Shown: one piece after another, positions 1,186-55,235 of the stretch | Numbering within the stretch: the stretch's first letter is position 1 | Layout: every line of letters starts with the position of its first letter | Assembly: GCA_020466095.1 (NCBI GenBank) | Contig: CM035806.1 | Location: 19,273,571-19,337,570, forward strand | Origin: Chlorops oryzae | Taxonomy: Eukaryota > Arthropoda > Insecta > Diptera > Chloropidae | Length of the DNA stretch: 64,000 nucleotides | Direction: 5' to 3' | The notes under the pieces: model-generated | Told to the model about the DNA's origin: nothing | Database searches by the model: none | The model's input: the letters and a program-made list of their open reading frames with translations, nothing else | Program-made: the position numbers and the translations under genes

Positions 1186-1453
1186 TCTAGGGCAACAGAA
1201 AATATTTAAATTTACCACCTAAAAGTATGCATTAGAATTATTGAAAACAAAAAAAAAAAAATCATTTTAAGCCTTTATAAGAGGAGCTCATTAAAGACTT
1301 CAAAGATATCCGCAGATCTTTCAGAGCCTATTCCTCAAGATGTTAATGAATGGGAAAATCTTCAAAAATGAATAGGTTTGTCACTATCGGAAATACTCAA
1401 ATTATTCGAATGCACACTTTTGGGTGATGAATTTAAATATTTCCGCTCCCCTT
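1186..1453 (+). mobile_element. AGGGCAACAG-ended miniature element (family 1), copy A
   Basis: Starts TAGGGCAACAGAAAATATTT, contains CACCTAAAAGTATGCATT, GAGGAGCTC and GATCTTTCAGAG, and ends with GGGTGATGAATTTAAATATT plus a decayed inverse of the start. CTTGTAAC stands at both 1178..1185 and 1454..1461, an 8-bp duplication of hAT type. Confidence 0.7.
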
Positions 1454-5530: not shown

Positions 5531-6812
5531 GCCAAACGATTTCTAAAAATAGATACTGAGAGAGAAAAGAGCACGTGTGCGGCTTTCAAATAATTTTTTC
5601 GCTATAACGGATTTTCTCGCGCCGCCCCGATGACTTTGTCCGGCGTGATGCGCAATGCCATTTGTGTAGAATAATCACCGCGCGACTCCTTTACAAAGGG
5701 AGTCGGGACGGCTCCTTTTTCATGCTGATTTCATCGCAGAAGCCCGCCTGACATTTTCTACTGGGTAACTTTCGCTACATATGAACCTGTTAGAATAATC
5801 GCGTGTTCCATGATAATCAAGAAACAAGTTAAGCTAACAAACGAACAAGCAAATAATGGTGACGGAAAGCACAAAGCTTTTTCCTTTTTCCTTTTTGCTT
5901 ACTGCTTTCTTGTTTTTGTTTTTGTCTTTTTTTGTTTGTTTTCGTTTTCTCTCTCTAAAGTGAAAAGGTTCTATTTCTGAGAATAAACGATTTCCTCGAG
6001 TCATTAATTTTGTGACACTAAAAATAGAAAATTTGACAAGCAAACAAAAACGAAACTCAACGTAAGAAAAGAGCAGAAGGAGCGTGCATTTTACGCTTTT
6101 TGTGCCCACATTTTCAACTGCTTAAATAATTTCTGTCTTTGTATAAAAATTTTTTCTTTGTTGGTTCCGCCACTTCCGTTCCGTTCCGTTTCGGTCCGTT
6201 GCGTTTCGATGCCTACTTAACCCCTTGAACGAGCACAGCAGGAAATTCATTTAAAATTTTTTCAGTGTAGAAAACAAAGGTATTTCTACCTGTTACAACA
6301 AGGGCAATACCCAAAACGCTGACAAGGAACCTAATTTCCAAGCACCTACCAAAGCCCCATCCCATTTTTTCCCCGATTTTTATTAAACGCGTACTCTTTG
6401 CCTTTTGGCCCTGGCGTTTTTTTTTTTTTTTGTTTTTTTTTGTTTTTTTGATATTTGATTTAAAGTGGAAAAAATATGTCATGTCATGTGGAAAAAATCA
6501 ATTGACTTTTCTATTTTATTTTTATTTTTAATTCGGCTTTCGATTTTCACAAAATTTAAGAACTATTTTGAGTTATTTACGCAAGTTTGTACAAATCTAA
6601 TTTGATTAAAAATTTAAAAACAATCCTCTTCACATTTTTCTACTTATTTTAAGCCATTTGGAGTGAATTATCAACTCTTTGAATTCAATTTCAATGTCGT
6701 AATACCTAGTTTTCTTAACGGAAGAATCTACTTATGTTCTAAGATTTGAATTTGTGTGATGTCCGATAGACAAAGATATCGCAATTTCCATCATTCACAC
6801 AATTACTCGAAT

Positions 6813-7071: not shown

Positions 7072-7530
7072 AAAACATGCAGAATACTTGCAGCATTTCT
7101 GACCCCAATTTTGTTGTATGTTTAATATTAGTAAACAGAAACGCATTAATGCATGAAGCATTCAATGTTTGATGCGATGATATGACTCGAATTCTCTGGC
7201 CGACCTCAGGCACGCCATATAAATATGCATGTGTGTATAAACATCAAATAACATGTCAGCCCCGATGAATGCAAATACCAGAACGCGCCCAGCTTTGCAC
7301 ATCATTCCTGGGCAATTCAAAGCGCAATAAAAATGTGCTCTATGCAAACGGAAAATGGACAGACAGACGAACAAACACACGAACGCAAACACAAATATAA
7401 ACTCACACGAATGATCTCTCGCATTCGACATTCGTTTTCTGTCCTCTGTTAGGGAATTGTTATAAATAAACAAAAAAAGAAATAAAGGTATGCTTCTATT
7501 ATTTTCGTGTCCACAATTCGAATCATTACT

Positions 7531-7796
7531 AGGGCAACTGAAAATGTTAAAATTTACTACATAAAAGTATGCATTCGAATATTTTAAAACTAATAAATAT
7601 TATTTTAAGCCCGTATAAGAGGAGCTCAATTAAGACATCAAAAGGTATCCACAAAACTTTCAGAGGCTTTCCTCTCTAGATGTTAAAAAAAAATGGACAA
7701 ACCTACAAATATGCACAGATTTGTCACTATCGGAAATATTCGGAATATTTCAATGCATAATTTTGGGTGCTGAATTGAAATATTTTCTCTTGTTAC
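7531..7796 (+). mobile_element. Family 1 miniature element, copy C
   Basis: AGGGCAACTGAAAATG at the left, then AAAAGTATGCATTCGAATATT, AAGAGGAGCTCAATTAAGAC, ACTTTCAGAGGC and TTTTGGGTGCTGAATTG at the right. The right terminal bases have decayed. Confidence 0.65.
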
Positions 7797-18406: not shown

Positions 18407-18669
18407 TAAGGCACAGAAAATATTTAAGTTTCGCACCTAAAAGTATGCATTTGAACATTTTAAAGGCAATTAATTTCATTTGAAGCCTTTACAAGAGGAG
18501 CTCAATTAAGGCCTTAAAGATATCAGCGGATCTTTCAGAGGCATTCCTGAAGATGTAAATAAATGGGCCAATCGAAAAAAATGAACAGATTTGTAACTAT
18601 CTGAAATAGTCGGAATTTTTCAGTGCATACCTTTGGGTGCTGAATTGGGGAACGTTTTCTGTTCCCCTA
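18407..18669 (+). mobile_element. Family 1 miniature element, copy F
   Basis: AAGGCACAGAAAATATTTAA at the left, CACCTAAAAGTATGCATTTG, AAGAGGAGCTCAATTAAGGC, GATCTTTCAGAGGCATTCCT, and TTTTCTGTTCCCCTA at the right. Confidence 0.65.
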
Positions 18670-29525: not shown

Positions 29526-30399
29526 TGTATACCTACCTATTCATAGTATTCATAATACTATGTGAAGCTTAAATGTGTAATTTACATGTATTAAAAAAAT
29601 ATAAAAAAAAATAATAATAAAAACACAATTCATAAAAATAAAACTATGATTAAAAAGAAAAACACAAAAAAGACGCAGAGACGCAAATGTTGCTTTATTT
29701 TAATGACTTAAGTTTTCAAATGCGTATACACATACATAGTATATATGTATATGTACATAGTATATAATTGTATACACATACATTATTGCACTTATTATAT
29801 AATTACATTAAAATTTGATTTATTTTAAACATTTTTCTTTACCAACCATTTATATGTAAATTTAGCAGTTGATGTTTCAAATGGTGCATCTACATACCCC
29901 GTTTTCTTCGATTTATGCAACAATTGCGTCTTCAATTATTTAAGTAACTCAAAATTATTATTCCAAAGTCAAAAACAAAAGCAACAACAAAAAAACCGAA
30001 ACCAAGAAACCAAAACAAAACAAAATAATAAAAGAAAAAGCTTACTATTTAATATAACAAAAGACAAAAAAAAAAAAAAAAACAACAAAAAACAAACAAA
30101 ACAAAAAAAAAACAAATAAACACATTATACACCAAAAAACAAGTGAACACTTTTCTTCTCTTTTCTTGCATGTGAATATCTTCCTTTTTCAGTTCTGTCG
30201 ACAATAACAACAACAAAAAACCTCTACAACAACAATTTTCTATCAATTTTCAATTCTATTTTGTCTCCGGGAATCTCTCCAACATATGCAACAACAAACA
30301 AAATGCAAAAATACACACTTAAAAAGTTATATATATATACAATGTCACTTCCTGTCTTTCCTTGTCTTCTTTATTTTTCATTCATCATTTGCTACACCG

Positions 30400-31450
30400 C
30401 ACAGTAGGGCCGCTCCATATATTTCTTGGAAAAAATAGAAGGAGTGGTCGTAGAGCATTGAAATTTTGCATAAGCACTTCTGTGGGCTAAACTAAGATAT
30501 TTTGAAAAAATCTTGGAAATCCGCCCACTGCCACGCCCACCTCCCATATAAGTGCACATGTCAAAATTTTTATTTTTGGACCTAGGGACTTGAAATTCGG
30601 GACACTTCTTAATTGAGTTCTCTTCAAAAAAAAGCTAAAAATAATGCGGCTGCCACGCCTACTTTTGGTTTAACGCCCATCGGAAATTGCAGATCTTACA
30701 TGTTTTTATTTCCTATCTAGCAGTATATGGAATTTTCACATAAATTAAAGAATTTTAATTTTTTCCAAAAGCTTAAACTTTGGTTGTCTCCATTCAAAAC
30801 AAGATAATACCCTCAACAGGCAAAACTAATGTTTCATACATAAATCGTTCCATGTTTTAATTACGTAAAACCTACAAGTATGCCCCATTTTTTGTCTTAT
30901 TGAGCAATTGTATGAAATATTGCTGTGACTTTTGAAATTCAAATCGATGTTAGTTACAGAAAAGGTATTAGAAGGTGAATTTTTCTGTTTAGATTGAAAG
31001 TATAGACTCGTACCTTCCATTTGTATAAAGTAAGAGGGCTAAGCAAGGCAAAGCACATAAAGTTGTATTCCAAGAAAAAATGAGAAGTTGATATTTTTTA
31101 CTCTAATTTCTGTCGAATTATAATAATTATTCTACTCTTCTAATCTTAATAAATTTTTTTTTACATGAAAGAGTAATTGCTATATTTCCACCAAAAAGTA
31201 AAACAAAGGCAATCGCGTTGGGTTTTCACATAAAAAAAAATTTCTCTATTTGGACAACAATTTTAATCTGAAATTTATTGAATAACATTCCCTTGACTTT
31301 TGTTAGTTTTTTTTAAATAAAAAAATTCAATTTAAAAAAAAAACATGTCGAATTCCTCATATCCAAATATTTCTTTATAAAAGTGAATCATTAAAATTTT
31401 GAAATTCAAAAGTTGAAATATCCTATTTTTTCCACTGATTCCCCACTGTG
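30400..31450. mobile_element. Transib-like non-autonomous element, copy 1 (1051 bp), with recombination-signal-like ends
   Basis: Flanked by a perfect 5-bp duplication CACCG (30395..30399 and 31451..31455). The left end starts CACAGTA, then a 23-bp spacer, then AAAAAATAG. The right end in reverse starts CACAGTG, then a 12-bp spacer, then AAAAAATAG. Transib elements are known for CACWATG-type termini, A-rich inner nonamers and GC-rich 5-bp duplications. There is no transposase frame inside. Internal sequence shared with copy 2 includes GGAGTGGTCGTAGAGCATTG and a CCACGCCCACCTC block. Confidence 0.75.
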
Positions 31451-32845
31451 CACCGTCGCATACATTTCCGATCAATATATTTCTAATCATTAAATCATCA
31501 CAAACATAGGTAACATACATGCCTGCAAGAATTTGCTCTTGGATGGAAGTATACGCCAGAGACTGAATTGACAGAAAAATTAAGACCGTTATCAACATTT
31601 TTAATCCAATTCTGAGCGAAAAACATGGCCTTTCAGATACTTAATGCTATTAAGCGCTGTCAACATTAGACATCCTTGAGAATCAGGTCTATTTTTTTCA
31701 ATTACATAGAGCCAAAAATGGGACGCGATAATACAGGTGCGACATGTATTGTGATGCATGTTAACTGGAAGACCGATTACGAAAAAGAAACATTGAATCT
31801 TTGAGTTCTGAAACAATTTTTAATTCTACATAGCTTTCTTCGGCTGCGTGTCCATTAATTAATAAAAATTACTATTTAGGGTCTTCCCATAATCGTGAAA
31901 AGTTCGAAAAAGCGGAACAATGCAGAATTTTTCATAGAAAAATTCGTTCATTACCTTCGAAGCCTTCTCTTGATTTACGAGTTTTTGATGTTTTCGAGGC
32001 AAATACATGTTTAAGGGAAGACCCCTTTTTATTTTAATGTGATCATATGCCATCGCTGGGAACGAACACCATCTCGAATTAAGGCAATAGCAGAGAATCA
32101 AATACCGTTGGGCTGGCCCAACCAAAAACCGAAAATCCACTTCTTTCTATCTCACAGTTATGGGCTTCTAAACCTAATCTCGAAACCCTTTTTTGATCTC
32201 ATGGTTATGTCGTTCTTAACCTAATCCTTAAACTCTTAACTAATCTAACCGCGAACTCAGCATGCTCTTAAATCAAACACGAACATAAAATCTGCTCAAT
32301 CGTTTGTTCAGTGGGATTTATGAAAAAGGATCCGGCTGAAGAGATCAAGCAAATATTATGATATGGTTTTGATTTCGTCCAATGCAAGCTTACACATCTG
32401 ATAATGATTTTTAAAGGTAACTCATCTCTTTTGAACGAACTAAAATCGTAAATCATCAATTCACACGTGATTTCGAGCGGAAATCTCTTTTAGAATTCTT
32501 GTCTTAGTAACTAGAATGAAATTAGATGTAAGAACAAATTTCATAAATGGTTACGTAGCGATTCGAAACAAAAATTAAAAAAAAATTTTTTGTCTAGTGA
32601 AAAAAACAAAAATTGATTATAATTTATAAGATGATTCCCGATATCGATGTTCTAGAAGTGAGAAATTAACATTGTTTAGCTTCAATGTTTTGAATAGGCG
32701 TACGTGTCTGTAAATGTATGTATGTGCATGTTGATGTTTATATCTTTATAGAAGAGGAAAAATCTAGTCATGTAGAATTTATACCCAAGAATGATAAGAA
32801 TCAAAAGATTTAGAAAGGATCTGGGCAGAAGAGTATGTTTTTCTA

Positions 32846-41192: not shown

Positions 41193-42766
41193 ATATATCG
41201 TCGTCCCGGAGTTATCTCCTCGTATATCACAAAATCAAAAAATTTGAGATAAGCACGTTTTCCCGTTTACTTTTCCGAGATCTATCCATCTGTCGAGTCT
41301 CCAGGATGCTATACCTTATAGTTTACGAGATATTTGTGAGCTAAATAATTGTATATCCTTTAAAATTATAATTTCTACGCGTTATAGCATCGTATATCCA
41401 TATTTTGTGGATATACTATGATTTATATATGAAATTTGCGCAGTAAAAAGTTGTTGCGTTATCTCATCGTATGTGCAAACAATTTTTTTTATATTTAAGA
41501 AAAATTTTTTTATGTTAATTTTAAATAAAAAAAAGATTTATTCGTGTGAAAAAAAAACAAAAGAAGCAAATAAAAGCAACACTCCTACAAAAATTTTCAT
41601 TCTGAAAATAATGTGGAATGCTTATTATACTTAGAATATAACAAATTCCATTTCATTAAATTTATAATATAAAAAGTTCTATTAAATTAATAAATTTTGA
41701 AAATATTTAACATCTTCTTCTGGAAGATAGCTGAATAGACTCTCAATGTCTTTTTGTTTCTGTGGCGCTATTTGTTTTGGGGTTGAAATACTTATTTAAA
41801 ATGGTTTTGCATTTTCGCTGAAAAATTTTTTGTACATTATATTGAATAAATTGTTCTTATTGTATTTAATTAATTTAATCTTATTGAAAGGCACTAACTA
41901 AAGCTAATGCAGGTAGTTCAGCTCCTTAAAACAAATGTGGAACGTTCTACCAACAACAATACCCATATCAATTCCTTATTTGAAGCTTGGTTGCTTACAT
42001 TAACATACATATAATAATATAATTTCCCCAACAAAAAAACGAATTCTAATTTTTTATTTTTAATCTATGGCTGAGAAGAAGAACGACTTAACTCCACTTT
42101 TCTGTTTTTTGAGAAAAATCTATTTGAAAGGTGTAAATGTTTAGGTCACGGGAAAAGAATAAGAGATATGTGTATTATTTAAATAGGCACATTTTTAAGG
42201 TATCAGGTATGACTTTTGAATGCTACCTTTAATGTACAAAAAAAATTTCGCTATTTGATGCAGTGGCAAGTCGTTTTTCTCAGGAAATGCGGAGTTAAGT
42301 CATTTTTCAACAATAAGATTATGATTTGGACTCCTTTTTTTTATTTTTAAATGTAAAAAGGATACTCAAATAACAAATTTCCTATATAATCTCATTAAAA
42401 AAAATTTAGTTATGTCGTTTTTCGTGTCAAAAAAAAATAAAACAAACAAAAATTTTTCAAATCTTTATTAAATCATTTGCTCGTATATCCACTTTCCAAC
42501 ACAGGTTGCAAAAAAAGTGGCGTATACGATGAATTGTCAAAAATTCTTGGAATGAAAAAAACCCTATAACTTAAATAATTTTCCAAGTAACTTTAAATTA
42601 ATGATCAGAAATAATAAAAAGTAAAGCATTTTATATAAGGAAAACAGAATCAACGATTTTCAACGAGCCATTTTTTTTTATATTCCATGTTAAACTTTAA
42701 ACTTCAATTTCCCAACAAAAGGTTGATTGTGATATACGAGAAGATAACTCCGGGACGACGATATAT
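41193..42766. mobile_element. Palindrome-rich non-coding element with 40-bp inverted ends
   Basis: ATATATCGTCGTCCCGGAGT followed by TATCTCCTCGTATATCACAA at 41193 recurs inverted at 42727..42766 with one mismatch in 40 bases. The motif GTTATCTCNTCGTATATC or a variant also appears at 41381 and 41458, and inverted near 42529. Local hairpins contain it: CATCGTATATCCA against TGGATATACTATG (41388..41420), and TCGTATATCCACTTT against AAAGTGGCGTATACGA (42481..42536). No coding frame. Family unknown; fold-back-like structure is inferred. Confidence 0.6.
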
Positions 42767-43028
42767 CATATATACGAGGCACCGTTCAATTTTCTCGAAC
42801 GTTGATATAATAATCTAGCATGCGCGAATTCGATCTCTCCGTGGCGTAGTGGATAGCGTGTGCGCTCATCCCAACAAAAGGTTGATTGTGATATACGAGA
42901 AGATAACTCCGGGACGACGATATATCATATATACGAGGCACCGTTCAATTTTCTCGAACGTTGATATAATAATCTAGCATGCGCGAATTCGATCTCTCCG
43001 TGGCGTAGTGGATAGCGTGTGCGCTCAG
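42711..43028 (+). repeat. 159-bp tandem duplication, two copies differing by one base
   Basis: Unit 1 is 42711..42869 and unit 2 is 42870..43028, both beginning CCCAACAAAAGGTTGATTGT and ending GATAGCGTGTGCGCTCA plus one differing base. Each unit contains the right terminal repeat of the palindromic element and the first half of a tRNA-like sequence. The near identity implies a recent duplication. Confidence 0.95.
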
Positions 43029-44516: not shown

Positions 44517-46736
44517 ATGCCACCAAAACAAGTTGAGTTAGCTCAGACCAGCAATAGGAATGAAGACGATGACGCATCCTTTATCGACGAGGAGCCCGAC
44601 GAAGTTTCGGTAACGAAACAAAAGGTACAACGTTTCAAGTTTTTACGATTCATCCGAATCGGTTTGCTTTTCTCAATTTGGTTCACGTCAACGATAATAT
44701 TATTCATAACAAATGAATATAAGGGCACATGGCAATATACGCAAATTCCGATCCGTGCCGAAGGCAAAGAATATCCGATCAAAAATCAGCCTGCATCGAA
44801 CGAGGTGACCTTATTGATGAAAGGTCCATTTAAGTATAAGCTTGCGGATCTATTTGGACGTGAAACGGTCGAGCAGCATGGCCATTTAGAGGGCACGACC
44901 GAGAGCGAGGGTTATGCTGGCGGCGGCGGTGGCGGTGGCGACAGCTCTGGAACATTTCTAATTGTCGAAGTTTGGCGCCGTTTTCAGAATGCGGGCGGGA
45001 ATACTCAAATTGAGAACGTTACGAACGCACTCGAATTCGAATTGATAAATCCGAAATACTTCGATTCATCGGAAATAGTTACACGGGCGCGTATCTTTCA
45101 TTTAAGGCCATCGTCGTCGGGCGGAACGTTTTTCTATCATTTTTCATTGAAAAATAGTGCCGAGCCATTGCCATTGGCAATACAAAGCTTCCCGGCAGCA
45201 ACGTTTTCAACGCTCAGTGTTATCCTATCAATATGCATTGTGATCGGCCTCTATATGATGCTCTTTTGGGATATAACCTCGCGTGTGATCATCGGCATTA
45301 TGGTCTGTACACTATCGGTGGCACTGATGAGTTTTAGCGAAACTCGTCCGCCACTCCCGAAGCTGGTCGAATACGTTGATATCGATTATGTTATGCTGCT
45401 CTTCGGCTTGACGATCATATTTGGCGTTTTAGCTGAGACTAGCGCTGACATCACGCTAGCGGTACATGTCTATCGCCTGTCGAACGGTCATGTTTGGCCC
45501 CTTTTGACGGTCCTGTGCGCAATAACATTCATCGGTTCGGCCATTCTCGATCATTTAACAATTCTGGTGCTAACGACCTTATTTACGCTACGGATCTGTG
45601 AAGTTGCACAACTGAATCCCGCTCATGTTCTAACATGTTTAATCGTATTCGCAAATACCGGTGATATGCTCGGTCCGTCGGCGAATATAAAAAATCTAAT
45701 GCTCGCGCATGCGAATAACGGTTATGTGCATTACCATCAGAGCTATTTCAAATATATATCCCATATGATAATTCCTGTTGTATTATCGGCAGCATTAACT
45801 TATGGATTCCTTCGATTATTTTATCGTGGCACAGTCGCGATGCAAAACGAGGAGGCACCCATTGTGTCGCGTCTGAAGCATGCCATACGTTTCTGGAGTC
45901 ATACGGCGAAGAGTCTCGGCGAGTACTCGGAAGCGGAGAAGGCCGTTCATCAAAATGTTCAGCTAAAGGTAACACGTTTGAGGGATCGTCTGAAGCGTTT
46001 GGGGAAAATGCCATTACCATCGGAGGGCTTCAATGAGAAATTGAAACGTCTAATCGAGGCGAACGAGATCCGTAAGAGACCGCAAATGATCATGTGCCTT
46101 GTTATATTATCGCTGGTTATAATGATGCAATTATTGCATGCACTCAAATTGGTGAGTGTCTCGAACGGATTTATATGTATGCTCTTTTCGCTTGTCCTGC
46201 TCGCACTTACCGATTGGCATGATTTTGAATCTTTAATGCATCGTGTCGATTGGTCGACGATTATCTTTATGGCATGCTTTATGATTATATCAAAATCGTT
46301 GGCATCGCTCGGATTATCGGAGGAGCTGTCGAATTTAATTGTCCATCGAATATCAAGAATTGATAGTAGCTATCAACTCGAGGTCGGATCATTAATTTTA
46401 ATAGTGATCTCGACTTTTTCGGCTGCACTCTTCGATACGGATTATATTCGGGATATAATTGCGAAAAGTGTTGCCAATTTAGCTGACGTTAATCCGGAAC
46501 ATCAATTGGCTTTGGAGCCGTTATTATTATCCGTAATATTGGGCACCGGTTTCGGTTGTAATCTGACGCTCATCTCGTCGTTCTCAAATATTGTTTGCGC
46601 CGGACTGGCGGAGAAGCACGATTATAAATTCTATTTCTGGGATTTCTTTAAGGTCGGCGCAACAGTCACTTTAATAAATATTATTTTAAGCATGGCTTAT
46701 ATTAGCCTGTTCATCTTGGCTTTAGGATATGAATAA
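44517..46736 (+). CDS. P-protein (OCA2/hoepel-like) membrane transporter, single exon, 739 aa
   Basis: A single ATG-started frame of 739 codons ending TAA, with balanced codon use quite unlike the AT-rich flanks. It belongs to the ArsB/NhaD-type permease fold of OCA2/P proteins, anion or ion transporters of intracellular membranes; Drosophila relatives are hoepel1 and hoepel2. Residues 1-40 are acidic and cytosolic. The first membrane helix is about 43-64, followed by a large luminal loop to about 225 with a run of seven glycines near 135. Membrane helices then run from about 228 to 435, a basic linker spans 445-520, and a second helix block covers 523-738. The C-terminal signature is clear at about 676-700 (GTGFGCNLTLISSF then NIVCAGLAEK). 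The first repeat reads AILDHLTILVL (342-352) and TGDMLGPSANIKNL (381-394); the second reads AALFDTDYI (636-644). OCA2 proteins carry Asp-Asn in both places, so substrate handling may differ. Being intronless, it could be an old retrocopy, yet the frame is undamaged. Confidence 0.9.
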   Translation: MPPKQVELAQTSNRNEDDDASFIDEEPDEVSVTKQKVQRFKFLRFIRIGLLFSIWFTSTIILFITNEYKGTWQYTQIPIRAEGKEYPIKNQPASNEVTLLMKGPFKYKLADLFGRETVEQHGHLEGTTESEGYAGGGGGGGDSSGTFLIVEVWRRFQNAGGNTQIENVTNALEFELINPKYFDSSEIVTRARIFHLRPSSSGGTFFYHFSLKNSAEPLPLAIQSFPAATFSTLSVILSICIVIGLYMMLFWDITSRVIIGIMVCTLSVALMSFSETRPPLPKLVEYVDIDYVMLLFGLTIIFGVLAETSADITLAVHVYRLSNGHVWPLLTVLCAITFIGSAILDHLTILVLTTLFTLRICEVAQLNPAHVLTCLIVFANTGDMLGPSANIKNLMLAHANNGYVHYHQSYFKYISHMIIPVVLSAALTYGFLRLFYRGTVAMQNEEAPIVSRLKHAIRFWSHTAKSLGEYSEAEKAVHQNVQLKVTRLRDRLKRLGKMPLPSEGFNEKLKRLIEANEIRKRPQMIMCLVILSLVIMMQLLHALKLVSVSNGFICMLFSLVLLALTDWHDFESLMHRVDWSTIIFMACFMIISKSLASLGLSEELSNLIVHRISRIDSSYQLEVGSLILIVISTFSAALFDTDYIRDIIAKSVANLADVNPEHQLALEPLLLSVILGTGFGCNLTLISSFSNIVCAGLAEKHDYKFYFWDFFKVGATVTLINIILSMAYISLFILALGYE

Positions 46737-48340: not shown

Positions 48341-48345
48341 CATCG

Positions 48346-49389
48346 CACAGTGGTGCCCGCCACATTCATTACAAAAAAAAATTAATAAATAAATAAATAA
48401 AAGGAGTAATCGTAGAACATTGGATTATGGCACACCCCACAAATTTGATCAAATTAAGAAAATTTTAAAATTTGGTAAAAAATCGAATTATTTCCACGCC
48501 CACCTCTCACACACTTGAAATTTCCAAATATTGCATTTTTTATCCGATCTTGATAAAATTTGGTTTCTATGGTTTGAGACTCTTAACCAAAAAAATAAAA
48601 ACTTATCTTGATGAAAATCGGATCACTGCGACGCCCATTTTCCTAAAAACAACAAAGTTTCAAATTTAGTATTTTGAACTTGAAGTGATATAGTTTCGTA
48701 CAGAAACGGGAATTAATGTTTTACCAAAATTTTTTCACATTTATCCAAAAAGATTTTCCAGTTTTACATTTTTTTTTTAAGTTAGAATAGGCTTCAAGCG
48801 GGAGCAACCAAACTTTATGGCGATCAAAATTGTAATATAATTATAGCAGGCACGTTTAAAGTGTAATTTTGTATTATATTTTTTGGTATATGCATAGGAA
48901 ATTTATATATTCTTGTCCCGGCGACTACCGAAGAGCTTCTAATTGGAAGTATCTTTTCGACATCCCAAAATTTTGATTTTTAGTGGTCACAGGTCAACGT
49001 AATATAAACCGATTTTGTTGTTTTATAGCTTAAAAAAAAAGTGAATGTGTTTTCAAAATTCACACTTGGATCAAAAAGGTATATCAAAAAGGTATATCAA
49101 ATTTTAACGAAACTAAAACAAACCAAGGTATTTCCCCATACAAATCACTTTTACAGATTTCAAGGTCCTTTATGTTTTCTTTGGCTCATAACTTTCTTTT
49201 TTTTAATTCAATTTGATTAATGAAGATGTTTTTGGAAACGTATAATATAGAAGAAAAATAGAAAATAGCATTTGAAGATTGTGGTAGGCAAAGTGACAAA
49301 GTTTAAAAATTCCGACCCACCTTAATAAGTAAGTATATAAGAATTGGATGTTCGAAAAATTGAATTTTTTCTGCTGAGGCACCACTGTG
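48346..49389. mobile_element. Transib-like non-autonomous element, copy 2 (1044 bp)
   Basis: Flanked by a perfect 5-bp duplication CATCG (48341..48345 and 49390..49394). The ends match over 12 bases, CACAGTGGTGCC. On the left a 23-bp spacer separates the heptamer from AAAAAATTA (48376..48384); on the right a 12-bp spacer separates it from AAAAAATTC. Same family as copy 1 by size, ends, 12/23 layout and shared interior (GGAGTAATCGTAGAACATTG, CCACGCCCACCTC). No coding capacity. Confidence 0.75.
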
Positions 49390-50027
49390 CATCGTGCCAA
49401 TAAATCTTCGCCGTGTTCTTTGTATATTGAAAAGATTAGTGTATTATCTGCTGTACCGTGAATTATTGTGTGAGCAAATTACACTTGAGAAACGAACGGT
49501 GAATTTTAGGAACCAAGCCAATCCGATCAGCATCTGTTTTCGTAAGTAATACGGGTTGAACCGTAATTACAACAACAACAACAACAGCTACAATAAAAGA
49601 GCTTAACTACGATTTGAATTTCGACTAGTAAAAAGTTAGGCTCGGTGTAAGCATTTGGTGTTTCTACATAGTGCAAATAAAATTTTTTATAGCCGACACC
49701 TTCTTTAGAGGGTGTATTACGTTTGTGCGTATGTGTGCAACATCCAGAACCAGCCGGGATAGACCAAACAGACCATAATGTACCTATAGAGAAACATCAG
49801 CGTCACCAGGAGATTCGAATCCGGCAGGTCCGTCCGTCTGTCCGTCCGTATACAGTTTTCTTATCGAAGGAGTAAGAACAAGTTCGAGAATGGACCCGAT
49901 TCGACCATTTTTTAGGGTACCTCTAGTGCTAGGGTCTGTTATGAGCACTGTTATGAAAACTGTTCTAAAATCTTAATTTTTCAAGAAATTTTTTTTTTTT
50001 TTTAATGAAATTTGAAATTGTAACATA

Positions 50028-51315
50028 TTAGGTGTAGTAAAAAGAAATCCATTATTTGTCCAATAGATGGCGTTATTTATCTGCATCACGCGTTGTATAA
50101 GTCCGATCGTGTTACGCTAGGGGGCATTAGAAAGATGACAGTTCCTACTAAAAAAGCTTTTTTGACACTTTTTTGATTGATTGATTCAGTTTTGTTTGAG
50201 AGCTTGTCAAAGATGGACATCAGCAAAGAGAAAATTCGCTACATTTTACAGTTTTTCTTCGATAAGGGAGAAAACGCAAGCCAGGCGGCTGAAAATGTGA
50301 ATAGCGTTTATGGACCTGATACTGTAACAGCCAATCATGCGCAATTTTGGTTTCGTCGATTCCGTTCCGGTAACTTCGATGTCAAGGATGCACCACGCAC
50401 TGGAAGGCCAATTGTCGAAAATGTCGATAAAATCATGGAAATTATCGAGTCCGACCGTCATGTTAGCACTGTTTCGATTGCAAAAGAGCTAAAGATTGCA
50501 CAAAAAACCGTTTGGAACCATTTGAATAAGGCTGGATACACAAAGAAGCTCGATGTATGGGTGCCACACGAGTTAACGCAAAAAAACCTCATAGACCGAA
50601 TTTCCATCTGCGAATCGCTGCTGAACCGCAACAAAATCGACCCATTTCTGAAGCGGTTGGTGACTGGTGATGAAAAGTGGGTCACTTACGACAACGTCAA
50701 GCGAAAACGGTCGTGGTCGAAACACGGCGAACCGTCGGAAACGGTGGCCAAGCCAGGATTGACGGCCAGGATGGTTTTGCTGTGTGTTTGGTGGGATTGG
50801 CAGGGAATTATATACTATGAGCTGCTCCCATACGGCAAAACTCTTAACTCGGAACTCTACTGTCAACAATTGGACCGTCTGAAGGAAGCAATCGCCCATA
50901 AGCGGCCAGCTTTGGCCAATAGGAGAGGAATTGTGTTCCATCAGGACAACGCCAGGCCACACACATCGATAGTGACTCGCCAGAAGCTCCGGGAGTTTGG
51001 TTGGGAGGTTTTTCTGCATCCACCTTATAGTCCGGACCTGGCACCAAGTGATTACCATCTGTTCCTGTCCATGGCGAACAATTTTGCTGGTGAAACATTC
51101 GCTTCAAGAGAGGCTTCTGAAATTCGACTGTCTCAATTTTTTGCTAATAGGAACGAGGGCTTCTATGAGAGAGGCATAATAAAATTACCTTTAAAATGGC
51201 AACAAGTTATCGAACAAAACGGCGCATATTTGACCTAAATCGGGTCATTCTAACTATCTTAAATAAAGCCCTCAATTTAATGCAAAAATAATGGATTTCT
51301 TTTTTCTACACCTAA
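50028..51315 (+). mobile_element. Full-length mariner transposon, 1288 bp
   Basis: Terminal inverted repeats match over about 30 bases: the left end starts TTAGGTGTAGTAAAAAGAAA and the right end, read in reverse, starts TTAGGTGTAGAAAAAAGAAA. Both then continue with TCCATTATTTG-like sequence. A TA target duplication lies at 50026..50027 and 51316..51317. The length and single uninterrupted transposase frame are typical of mariner. It sits inside a Helentron-like element and directly abuts a Tc1-like element on its right. Confidence 0.95.
50213..51238 (+). CDS. mariner transposase (D,D34D), apparently intact, 341 aa
   Basis: DNA cut-and-paste transposase acting in the nucleus on the element's own ends. 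I start at the ATG at 50213 (MDISKEKIRY); frame continues upstream only through a TTG, which is not a eukaryotic start. Two helix-turn-helix units occupy about residues 1-110, with the RTGRP linker near 66-70. The mariner signature WVPHELT follows at about 115. The catalytic triad is complete: VTGDEKW, then HQDNARPH, then YSPDLAPSD with exactly 34 residues between the second and third Asp. Length is close to the usual 345. No stop or frameshift is seen, so recent activity is plausible. The flanking inverted repeats are also intact. Subfamily is not determined. Confidence 0.93.
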   Translation: MDISKEKIRYILQFFFDKGENASQAAENVNSVYGPDTVTANHAQFWFRRFRSGNFDVKDAPRTGRPIVENVDKIMEIIESDRHVSTVSIAKELKIAQKTVWNHLNKAGYTKKLDVWVPHELTQKNLIDRISICESLLNRNKIDPFLKRLVTGDEKWVTYDNVKRKRSWSKHGEPSETVAKPGLTARMVLLCVWWDWQGIIYYELLPYGKTLNSELYCQQLDRLKEAIAHKRPALANRRGIVFHQDNARPHTSIVTRQKLREFGWEVFLHPPYSPDLAPSDYHLFLSMANNFAGETFASREASEIRLSQFFANRNEGFYERGIIKLPLKWQQVIEQNGAYLT

Positions 51316-53870: not shown

Positions 53871-54264
53871 GGTCACACTTTAGTTTTTCGTAATTTACTC
53901 CTAAGCCATGAAAGATATCATATTGAAATTTGGCATGGACTTCAACCAGGTAAATGTCCGAAAAACTGCATACAAATTTTTTTCGTAGTCCCTTCTTGGG
54001 TCGTGGGAAGTGGTTCAGAAGTTTCAAAAATCACGATTTTTAACGTTTTTCCTGGATAACTTTTTTACTATACATCCCAGCTTATTGAAATTTGGTGAGT
54101 GTATAGCTACTATGTAGACTTAAGCTTTCGCTAAAAAAAAATTGCGACATCGCTCTAACTATGGTCATCATCCTACACAATAGAAAAAAACACTCTTTCT
54201 CTTATTCTCATATCTGAGTACAAAAATTATTTTTTTGCTTCTTCTGATTGTGTATTTTGCCGCC

Positions 54265-55235
54265 AAATAAAGTCGTCCATTATGGATAAATTTTGACCAT
54301 GACCACATTTCGCGAAATTCGCAAAATTTGATTTTCACTATTTTGAAGTGAGTATTTCGCAGCTAAACTAAATTTCCTCTAAGGGTTAAAATTTGATCAA
54401 GACCACCATCCGCGAAATTCGCGAACATTTTATTTTCACTATTTTGAATTGAGTATTTCGCAGCTAAACGAAATGACCGCTAAGGGTTAAAATTTGACCA
54501 TGACCACCATTCTTGAAATTCGCAAAAATTGATTTTCACTATTTTGAATTGAGTATTTCGCAGTTAAACAAAATGTCCTCTAAGGGTTAAAATTTGATCA
54601 AGAACACCATCCGCGAAATTCGCGAAAACCTGATTTTCACTATTTTTAATTGAGTATTTCGCAGCTAAACAAAATGTCCTCTAAGGGTTAAAATTTGATC
54701 AAGACCACCATCCGCGAAATTCGCAAAAATTTTATTTTCACTATTTTGAATTGAGGTTTTCGCAGCTAGACAAAATGTCCTCTAACGGTTAAATTTTGAC
54801 CATGACCACAATTCGCGAAATTCGCAAAAATTTAAATTTCACTATTTTGAATTGAGGTTTTCGCAGCTAGAAAAAATGTCCTCTTACGGTTAAATTTTGA
54901 CCATGACCACCATTCGCGAAATTCGCAAAAATTTTATTTTCACTATTTTGAATTGAGTATTTCGCAGCTAGACAAAATGTCCTCTAACGGTTAAAATTTG
55001 ACCATGACCACCATTCGCGAAATTCGCAAAAATTTTATTTTCACTATTTTGAATTGAGGATTTTGCAGCTATACAAAATGTCCTCTAACGGTTAAAACTT
55101 GACCATGATCACCATTCGCGAAATTCGCAAAAATTTTATTTTCACTATTTTGAATTGAGGTTTTCGCAGCTAGACAAAATGTCCTCTAACGGTTAAAATT
55201 TGACCATGCTCACCATCCGCGAAAATTTTGTGCTT
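54265..55235 (+). repeat. 101-bp tandem repeat array, about 9 to 10 copies
   Basis: The word AAATGTCCTCTAA or a close variant recurs at 54370, 54471, 54571, 54672, 54773, 54874, 54975, 55076 and 55177, a spacing of 101 bases nearly every time (once 100). Each unit contains a GACCACCATCCGCGAAATTC-like segment, TTTTCACTATTTTGAATTGAG and TTTCGCAGCTA. Later copies share GGTTAAAATTTGACCATG and AACGG, earlier ones AAGGG, so the array grew in steps. The array is embedded in the element at 53684..55388. Confidence 0.93.

What the first reader, a model, noticed from the sequence alone, without database searches (positions are those of the whole stretch)
30400..31450. Element whose ends mimic a 12/23 pair of V(D)J recombination signals
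The left end is CACAGTA, 23-bp spacer, AAAAAATAG (30400..30438). The right end in reverse is CACAGTG, 12-bp spacer, AAAAAATAG (31450 back to 31423). A perfect 5-bp duplication CACCG flanks the element. Transib transposons are the accepted relatives of RAG1 and have RSS-like ends; a 12/23 asymmetry with the same nonamer on both sides is a striking case.
Basis: partly seen in the sequence, partly recalled or inferred. Interest (0 to 1): 0.85.

Follow-up and report, generated by a model that had tools for sequence, protein, structure and literature searches.

The report
Fly Transib transposon with RSS-like ends
This is a small, non-coding relative of a recently mobile fly jumping gene of the Transib kind (the kin of our antibody-recombination enzyme), and its two ends really do carry the 12- and 23-base spacing seen in antibody genes; such Transibs were known, but this is a clear new case.

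Summary
It is one copy of a non-coding, about 1,226-bp interspersed family in a 442-Mb fly-like genome. Of 39 other copies fetched, 35 keep both ends: the 5-bp duplication is perfect in 28 (consensus CGNCG), the right spacer is 12 in 33, the left spacer to the first A is 23 in 29. An autonomous relative exists: a 3,048-3,050-bp element with a Transib transposase (HzTransib 6PQN, E 1e-116, D-D-E kept), six copies with intact ends, at least 99.6% identical, and the same layout (23/12 to a CAAAAAATAG-like block; 24/13 if counted to the first A). Seven other Transib families, told apart by their ends, have near-equal ends; the 12/23 elements with coding remains share one transposase lineage. 12/23 Transib ends were already reported (Transib5 of D. 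melanogaster, Transib2/N1-N3 of A. gambiae; PMC8355894): a new member of a known kind. Its value is a young 12/23 Transib with no second gene seen, beside near-symmetric cousins. Whether the enzyme enforces a 12/23 rule is untested.

The parts
30395..30399 (.). target-site duplication CACCG, left
   Evidence: sequence; 28 of 35 other copies have a perfect 5-bp duplication
30400..31450 (+). non-autonomous Transib copy, 1,051 bp, oriented 23-end to 12-end
30400..30406 (+). left heptamer CACAGTA (family consensus CACAGTG)
30407..30429 (+). 23-bp spacer
30430..30438 (+). nonamer-like AAAAAATAG (family AAAAAAATAG)
30400..30470 (+). end shared with the 23-end of the autonomous L061/L065 element (family consensus 1-72, 77.8% identical)
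   Evidence: window coordinates derived from the gaps listed
30819..30820 (.). junction of a 173-bp internal deletion relative to the family consensus (consensus 424-596 missing)
31299..31450 (-). end shared with the 12-end of the autonomous element (consensus 1074-1226, 70.8% identical)
   Evidence: window coordinates derived
31423..31431 (-). nonamer-like AAAAAATAG, right end
31432..31443 (-). 12-bp spacer
31444..31450 (-). right heptamer CACAGTG
31451..31455 (.). target-site duplication CACCG, right
48346..49389 (+). second, diverged element of the same kind (1,044 bp): CACAGTG ends, right spacer 12, left A-run of 9 beginning after 20 bases
48341..48345 (.). target-site duplication CATCG of the second element (repeated at 49390-49394)

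Best explanation
The element is a non-autonomous (transposase-less) Transib transposon. Shown: it belongs to an interspersed family with CACAGTG termini, an A-rich nonamer-like block 23 bases in at one end and 12 at the other, and CG-rich 5-bp target duplications; the same genome carries a nearly identical set of autonomous Transibs with that layout and homologous ends. Inferred: the transposase of this lineage (or a close relative not seen here) binds heptamer and nonamer-like block at a 23-end and a 12-end, synapses the two, cuts at the heptamer as HzTransib and RAG do, and inserts with a 5-bp stagger into CGNCG-like sites. The 11-base difference, about one DNA turn, would let unequal ends sit on a two-fold symmetric enzyme through a tilted nonamer-binding dimer, as in RAG (recalled). 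The window copy lost 173 bp inside, before or after it inserted.
For: Ends and duplication in the window. Copies: 28 of 35 perfect TSD, consensus CGNCG; right spacer 12 in 33 of 35, left first-A spacer 23 in 29 of 35. Genome-wide right end: 110 matches, control 0, 93 of 100 listed of equal length. RAG1 profile PF12940 finds 27 places in the genome, 5 above the Pfam cut-off. L061 and five copies (L065, L066, L067, L069, L070) have perfect TSDs and identical first 40 bases at each end, and are 99.6-99.97% identical. Their transposase matches HzTransib (6pqn, E 1.1e-116), then RAG1 and RAG1L weakly (E 0.0036 and above); D174, D278 and E488 of the L065 frame align with the catalytic residues published as D126, D225, E436 (positions counted by eye). 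Family consensus and autonomous element share both ends: 72 bp at 77.8%, 154 bp at 70.8%. A further element with such ends, L078, keeps a transposase piece closest to L061 (71.8%; the other families 46-55%). The left-to-right shift of the inner part of the ends is 11-12 in all five 23/12 rows and 0-1 in all eight rows from other Transib families.
Against: The window family is non-coding and only 71-78% identical to the autonomous element at its ends, so L061 need not be its mobilising partner. The L065 transposase scores 19.3 bits with the RAG1 profile, under its cut-off of 25; its place rests on HzTransib. Counted to the first A, L078 is 24/13 and L061 24 with no A-run of four at its 12-end; 23/12 holds only if the C before the A-run is taken into the block. 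Constancy among copies 3.5-6.4% diverged (one 11%) is partly recent common descent: indels in the terminal 30 and 19 bases are few (2 and 0 of 35) but 31% and 16% of internal windows have as few, and copies were kept because their ends matched. The nonamer-like block differs from the V(D)J nonamer ACAAAAACC, and at the autonomous 12-end it is CAGAAATTC. In the second window element the left A-run begins after 20 bases, in a third related left end (L050, base 6289) after 26 (counted by eye), and L071 has an 11-base spacer at its 12-end, so 23 and 12 are not exact everywhere. Among the other families L057, L058 and L074 give their best shift at only 0.56-0.57 identity, and L058's ends agree at 18 of 40 bases, hardly more than the 15-17 of the 23/12 rows; their symmetry rests on the A-run positions. 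No activity was measured.
Confidence: 0.93

Rival explanations
1. 12/23 is only an inherited layout: an ancestor happened to have ends offset by about one helical turn, and the transposase of this lineage would accept 12/12 or 23/23 pairs as readily. No functional 12/23 rule exists here.
For: The 23/12 elements with coding sequence (L061 family, L078) belong to one transposase lineage, so the layout may have arisen once. PMC8355894 states that RAG1 without RAG2 does not prefer 12/23 over 12/12 (passage), and PMC7204232 expects invertebrate RAGL to be relatively insensitive to asymmetry (passage). Within the window family, few indels at the ends are not exceptional.
Against: The 12-spacer keeps its length between four families whose spacer bases agree at only 6-9 of 12 places, and the 23-spacer between three families agreeing at 14-17 of 23 (the second window element was left out of the latter because its A-run begins earlier). 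None of the 100 listed 12-ends of the window family (of 110 found) has another within 7 kb (read from the list), so no 12/12 derivative was seen; 23/23 derivatives were not searched for.
Confidence: 0.45
2. The ends are a chance resemblance on an element of another superfamily.
For: The window family codes for nothing recognisable, so its superfamily rests on its ends and duplications.
Against: 5-bp CG-rich duplications, constant spacers and shared ends with a Transib of the same genome; 0 of 30 random sequences gave such a pair.
Confidence: 0.02
3. The locus is a recombination signal or RAG-like (RAG1L plus RAG2L) element proper rather than a Transib.
For: The family heptamer CACAGTG equals the V(D)J consensus as quoted in PMC8289069 (passage), and spacers are 12 and 23.
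Against: The autonomous relative is about 3,049 bp and shows one frame over 130 aa in L061, L065 and L066, the transposase; no RAG2 profile was run, and introns could hide short exons. Its best solved match is HzTransib, with RAG1 far behind. Receptor gene segments around the copies were not searched for.
Confidence: 0.02

Closest known systems
12/23-asymmetric Transibs: Transib5 (Drosophila melanogaster), Transib2, N1, N2, N3 (Anopheles gambiae)
   Same: Transib termini with heptamer, nonamer-like block and 12/23 (plus or minus 1) spacers, as described in PMC8355894 (passages); the N families are non-autonomous like the window copy (recalled)
HzTransib (Helicoverpa zea, PDB 6PQN)
   Same: Transposase homologous over 453 residues, E 1.1e-116, DDE conserved
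   Different: HzTransib TIRs are reported as symmetric with little or no nonamer likeness (PMC8289069 passage); here they are 23/12
Vertebrate RAG1/2 and 12/23 RSS
   Same: Heptamer CACAGTG, spacers 12 and 23, A-rich nonamer-like block, 5-bp duplications on transposition (PMC7204232 passage), weak likeness of the transposase C-terminus to RAG1
   Different: No second gene seen in the element, nonamer not ACAAAAACC, a dispersed mobile element
Near-symmetric Transib families of the same genome (L057, L058, L059, L060, L062/L073, L074/L076, L075)
   Same: RAG1-profile match inside, CAC ends, perfect 5-bp TSD
   Different: First-A spacers 22-25 at both ends (L075 has no A-run; L074 has a second A-run at 13-14 on both sides), inner shift 0-1
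ProtoRAG (amphioxus), AanRAGL
   Same: Asymmetric bipartite ends
   Different: Spacers 27/31 and 4/13, RAG2L present (PMC8289069, PMC9435367 passages)

Membership tests
Transib superfamily | 5-bp, GC-rich target-site duplication | tested here: met
   CACCG in the window; 28 of 35 copies perfect, 5 with one mismatch, 1 with two, 1 with four; CGNCG consensus; GC bias of Transib TSDs stated in PMC8289069 (passage)
Transib superfamily | Inverted termini starting with a CAC heptamer | tested here: met
   CACAGTG in 29 of 35 left and 34 of 35 right ends
Transib superfamily | Transposase homologous to Transib with DDE (in the element or in an autonomous relative sharing its ends) | tested here: met
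   Absent in the window family; present in L061/L065, which share both ends. With the RAG1 profile L065 stays under the cut-off, 19.3 of 25 bits
Transib superfamily | Cut-and-paste movement by that transposase | not testable with these tools
   Dispersed copies with distinct duplications imply movement; no assay
12/23-asymmetric Transibs | Spacers of 12 and 23 (plus or minus 1) at opposite ends | tested here: met
   Window family 23/12 to the first A; L061 and L078 23/12 to a C-A-run block, 24 and 24/13 to the first A
12/23-asymmetric Transibs | Common descent with Transib5 or A. gambiae Transib2 | not tested
Functional 12/23 rule | Preference for 12/23 over 12/12 or 23/23 synapsis | not testable with these tools
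   Needs an excision assay; only the absence of 12-end pairs within 7 kb among 100 listed ends was seen
RAG-like (RAGL) transposon | RAG2-like gene beside RAG1-like gene | tested here: not met
   No second frame over 130 aa in L061, L065, L066; no RAG2 profile was run
V(D)J RSS | Nonamer ACAAAAACC | tested here: not met
   Block is A6-7TAG in the window family
V(D)J RSS | Flanking antigen-receptor segments | not tested
   No search made; the element is a dispersed repeat

The most novel reading that the evidence does not exclude
The L061 transposase, with no RAG2 partner, itself enforces a 12/23 rule, so that the pairing rule of V(D)J recombination can exist in, and may have been inherited from, a lone Transib transposase; near-symmetric Transib families in the same nucleus would then show by comparison which protein parts set the rule.
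Probability: 0.35. Interest if true: 0.8.

Novelty: new member of a known kind. Interest (0 to 1): 0.5.

Why it matters
How the 12/23 rule of antigen-receptor recombination arose is open; one hypothesis paper ties its recognition to RAG2 (PMC8355894, passages). Here one genome holds a very young Transib with 12/23 ends and no second gene seen, non-autonomous derivatives with the same layout, and seven Transib families with near-equal ends. That is a ready natural comparison for asking which part of a Transib transposase reads spacer length, and whether asymmetry is required without RAG2.

Tried and rejected
Chance resemblance: rejected by controls. Coding capacity of the window family: the longest stop-free stretches of the consensus, all under 120 residues, were read by eye and show nothing transposase-like; no profile was run on them. 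Second window element as a clean second proof of the 23 spacer: only partly usable, since its left A-run begins after 20 bases; its relatives L080-L086 gave no end pair. Spacer constraint inside the window family: the indel test was not decisive. Four of the 39 fetched copies (L041, L045, L046, L047) were dropped from the 35 because one or both ends were not placed; for L041 and L047 the script had also taken the wrong strand, and wider fetches (L049, L050) show a 12-end and no matching left end; L045 and L046 keep the 12-end. Within the autonomous family, L068 showed only its 23-end; L071 has both ends but unequal flanks and a one-base-shorter 12-spacer; both are left out of the six. Of the 27 RAG1-profile places, 22 were fetched wide; L052-L055 were seen only as 3.3-kb loci and gave no perfect pair, C50:79180 was not fetched. 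Of the 22, L063, L064, L068, L071 and L077 gave no pair with an equal duplication, and L072 one with a mismatch in the duplication. L069 and L070 lie about 6 kb apart with the same duplication and are 99.97% identical, so they may be one event copied. Host: one protein search with the 739-aa citrate-transporter-like frame gave one match at E 1e-50 or better, 28% identical, from Lucilia cuprina, enough for 'fly-like', no more. Never answered: the genome-wide left-end pattern, the copy count of the autonomous element and of its 12-end. Kapitonov and Jurka 2005 is not held.

Full report
What is there. The finding is exact to the base. The window lies at C1:19273571-19337570 of a 442-Mb assembly; the only protein clue used, a citrate-transporter-like frame, has one listed match, a blow fly protein at 28%, so the host is called fly-like here. 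The element 30400-31450 is flanked by CACCG. A scan for heptamer pairs with a perfect 5-bp duplication gave two in the window, this and 48346-49389 (duplication CATCG), and none in 30 random sequences of the same first-order make-up.

The family. A DNA search with the element scored 40 of 1,317 first-look candidates and listed 82 pieces. I fetched the 39 places besides the window copy. Both ends could be placed in 35; 4 were dropped. Duplications: 28 of 35 perfect, 5 with one mismatch, 1 with two, 1 with four (L039, whose left end is also unlike the rest); in the 33 with at most one mismatch, base 1 is C in 29, base 2 G in 25, base 4 C in 23, base 5 G in 29, that is CGNCG. Distance from heptamer to the first A of the A-run: left 23 in 29 of 35, 24 in 5, 20 in 1; right 12 in 33 of 35, 13 in 1, no run read in 1. 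Heptamer CACAGTG: 29 of 35 left, 34 of 35 right. The consensus of 34 copies plus the window copy (L039 left out) is 1,226 bp; 34 of the 35 are 3.5-6.4% from it, one 11%; the window copy is 4.9% away and lacks consensus 424-596. No frame of note was seen.

Genome-wide check of the 12-end. A pattern with the outer part fixed (CACAGTGGGGCATC) and 0-20 free bases before AAAAATAGG gave 110 matches, reversed control 0; of the 100 listed, 93 have the length expected for 12 plus A6, 4 are one longer, 3 one shorter (lengths read from the list). The window copy itself, with one change in the outer part, is not among them. No two of the 100 lie closer than about 7 kb, so no 12/12 derivative shows among them. 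The matching count for the 23-end did not complete.

The autonomous relative. The RAG1 profile PF12940 has 27 matches in the genome, 5 over the cut-off (all one family, that of L057, with symmetric ends), in frames up to 688 aa, and rings in 0 of 14 control genomes. Of 22 loci fetched wide around such matches (22 of 27 places), 16 show paired CAC ends with a perfect 5-bp duplication. L061 is decisive: 3,048 bp, duplication CGGCG, transposase frame 569 aa, ends CACAGTG-GTATTGCTTCATACATTTCTTGG (23)-CAAAAAATAG downstream of the gene and CACAGTG-GTATTTCGGTGG (12)-CAGAAATTC upstream. Five more copies have the same ends with duplications CGTCG, TGACG, CGCCG, CGCCG, CGCCG; identity 99.6-99.97%, hence recent movement (inference; L069 and L070 may be one duplicated event). 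Two further places of this family, L068 and L071, lack one end or equal flanks. Counted strictly to the first A, the 23-end of L061 is 24 and its 12-end has no run of four A; the 23/12 reading takes the C before the A-run as part of the block, which is where the window family has its first A. The frame matches HzTransib at E 1.1e-116 and RAG1 and RAG1L weakly (E 0.0036 and above), and stays under the RAG1 profile's cut-off (19.3 of 25 bits). D174, D278 and E488 fall on the residues published as D126, D225, E436 (numbers in PMC6941560, passage; positions counted from the alignment). A first exon with a GT-AG intron of about 66 bases is likely from tblastn matches upstream (inference).

Same ends, same lineage. 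The window family's consensus matches the autonomous ends over 72 bp (77.8%) and 154 bp (70.8%). L078, a 1,934-bp element with duplication CGACG, has such ends (24/13 to the first A) and a transposase piece 71.8% identical to L061, against 46-55% to the other five families compared. Comparing the two ends of each element, the inner part is offset by 11-12 bases in all five 23/12 rows (consensus, window copy, second window element, L061, L078) and by 0-1 in all eight rows from seven other Transib families. Some of these best offsets are weak (identity 0.56-0.57 in L057, L058, L074), and L058's ends agree at only 18 of 40 bases; there the near-symmetry rests on A-runs at 25 and 24. Right spacers of four families keep 12 bases with 6-9 of 12 identical, left spacers of three keep 23 with 14-17 of 23 identical. 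In a tree of 56 transposases (6 of this genome and 50 of the 388 homologues found) L065 sits among 67-80% identical unnamed relatives, apart from L057-L060 and L062; L057 and L059 are on long branches and their places are unsure. The end layout of those relatives is unknown.

Mechanism. Shown: dispersal with 5-bp duplications, a near-constant 23/12 layout, one transposase lineage. Inferred from HzTransib and RAG biochemistry: heptamer cutting with a hairpin on the flank (HzTransib, PMC6941560 passage), pairing of a 12-end with a 23-end, 5-bp staggered insertion. A GRP motif, noted in PMC9435367 as shared by the RAG1 nonamer-binding domain and Transibs (passage), stands in the N-terminal part of L061 and of L057-L060 and L062, so the motif alone does not explain asymmetry.

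What is known. PMC8355894 (passages) lists Transib5 of D. melanogaster and Transib2, N1, N2, N3 of A. gambiae as 12/23, after Kapitonov and Jurka 2005, which I could not read. PMC9435367 (passages) reports asymmetric ends in all Subgroup I and some Subgroup II Transibs; PMC8289069 (passages) says most Transibs are symmetric. So the layout is known, and this is a new member. Seven paper searches showed in their listings no report of this family, but an unnamed host, missing subscription papers and the absence of Repbase make that a weak negative. What is unusual is the close agreement with the V(D)J heptamer and spacers in a young autonomous copy, with near-symmetric cousins alongside.

Noticed in passing
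window 48346-49389: Second, diverged Transib-like non-autonomous element, duplication CATCG, right spacer 12; its relatives (42 pieces listed, 40 of 357 candidates scored) are 71-84% identical apart from itself, and none of L080-L086 gave clear ends.
   Followed up: partly
L050 bases 6289-6480 (G000:C1:113270000-113279999): A third related left end, CACAGTA with the A-run after 26 bases, followed by sequence like the window family; no right end sought.
   Followed up: partly
window 50177-51238 (+): 353-aa frame with mariner (Mos1-type) transposase domains, PF01359 and PF17906.
   Followed up: no
window 44517-46736 (+): 739-aa frame with a citrate-transporter (CitMHS) domain; one match listed, 28% to a Lucilia cuprina protein.
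   Followed up: partly
window 54221-55224: Tandem array of about ten copies of a roughly 100-bp unit (read from the self-comparison).
   Followed up: no
window 42710-43027: Perfect tandem duplication of 159 bp.
   Followed up: no
window 1187-1442, 1899-2157, 7529-7792, 18413-18647 and others: A family of roughly 250-bp repeats in both orientations, about 78-83% alike.
   Followed up: no
L057-L060, L062, L073-L076: Seven further Transib families, told apart by their ends, with near-symmetric ends and, in five, open frames of 597-688 aa, in the same genome.
   Followed up: partly
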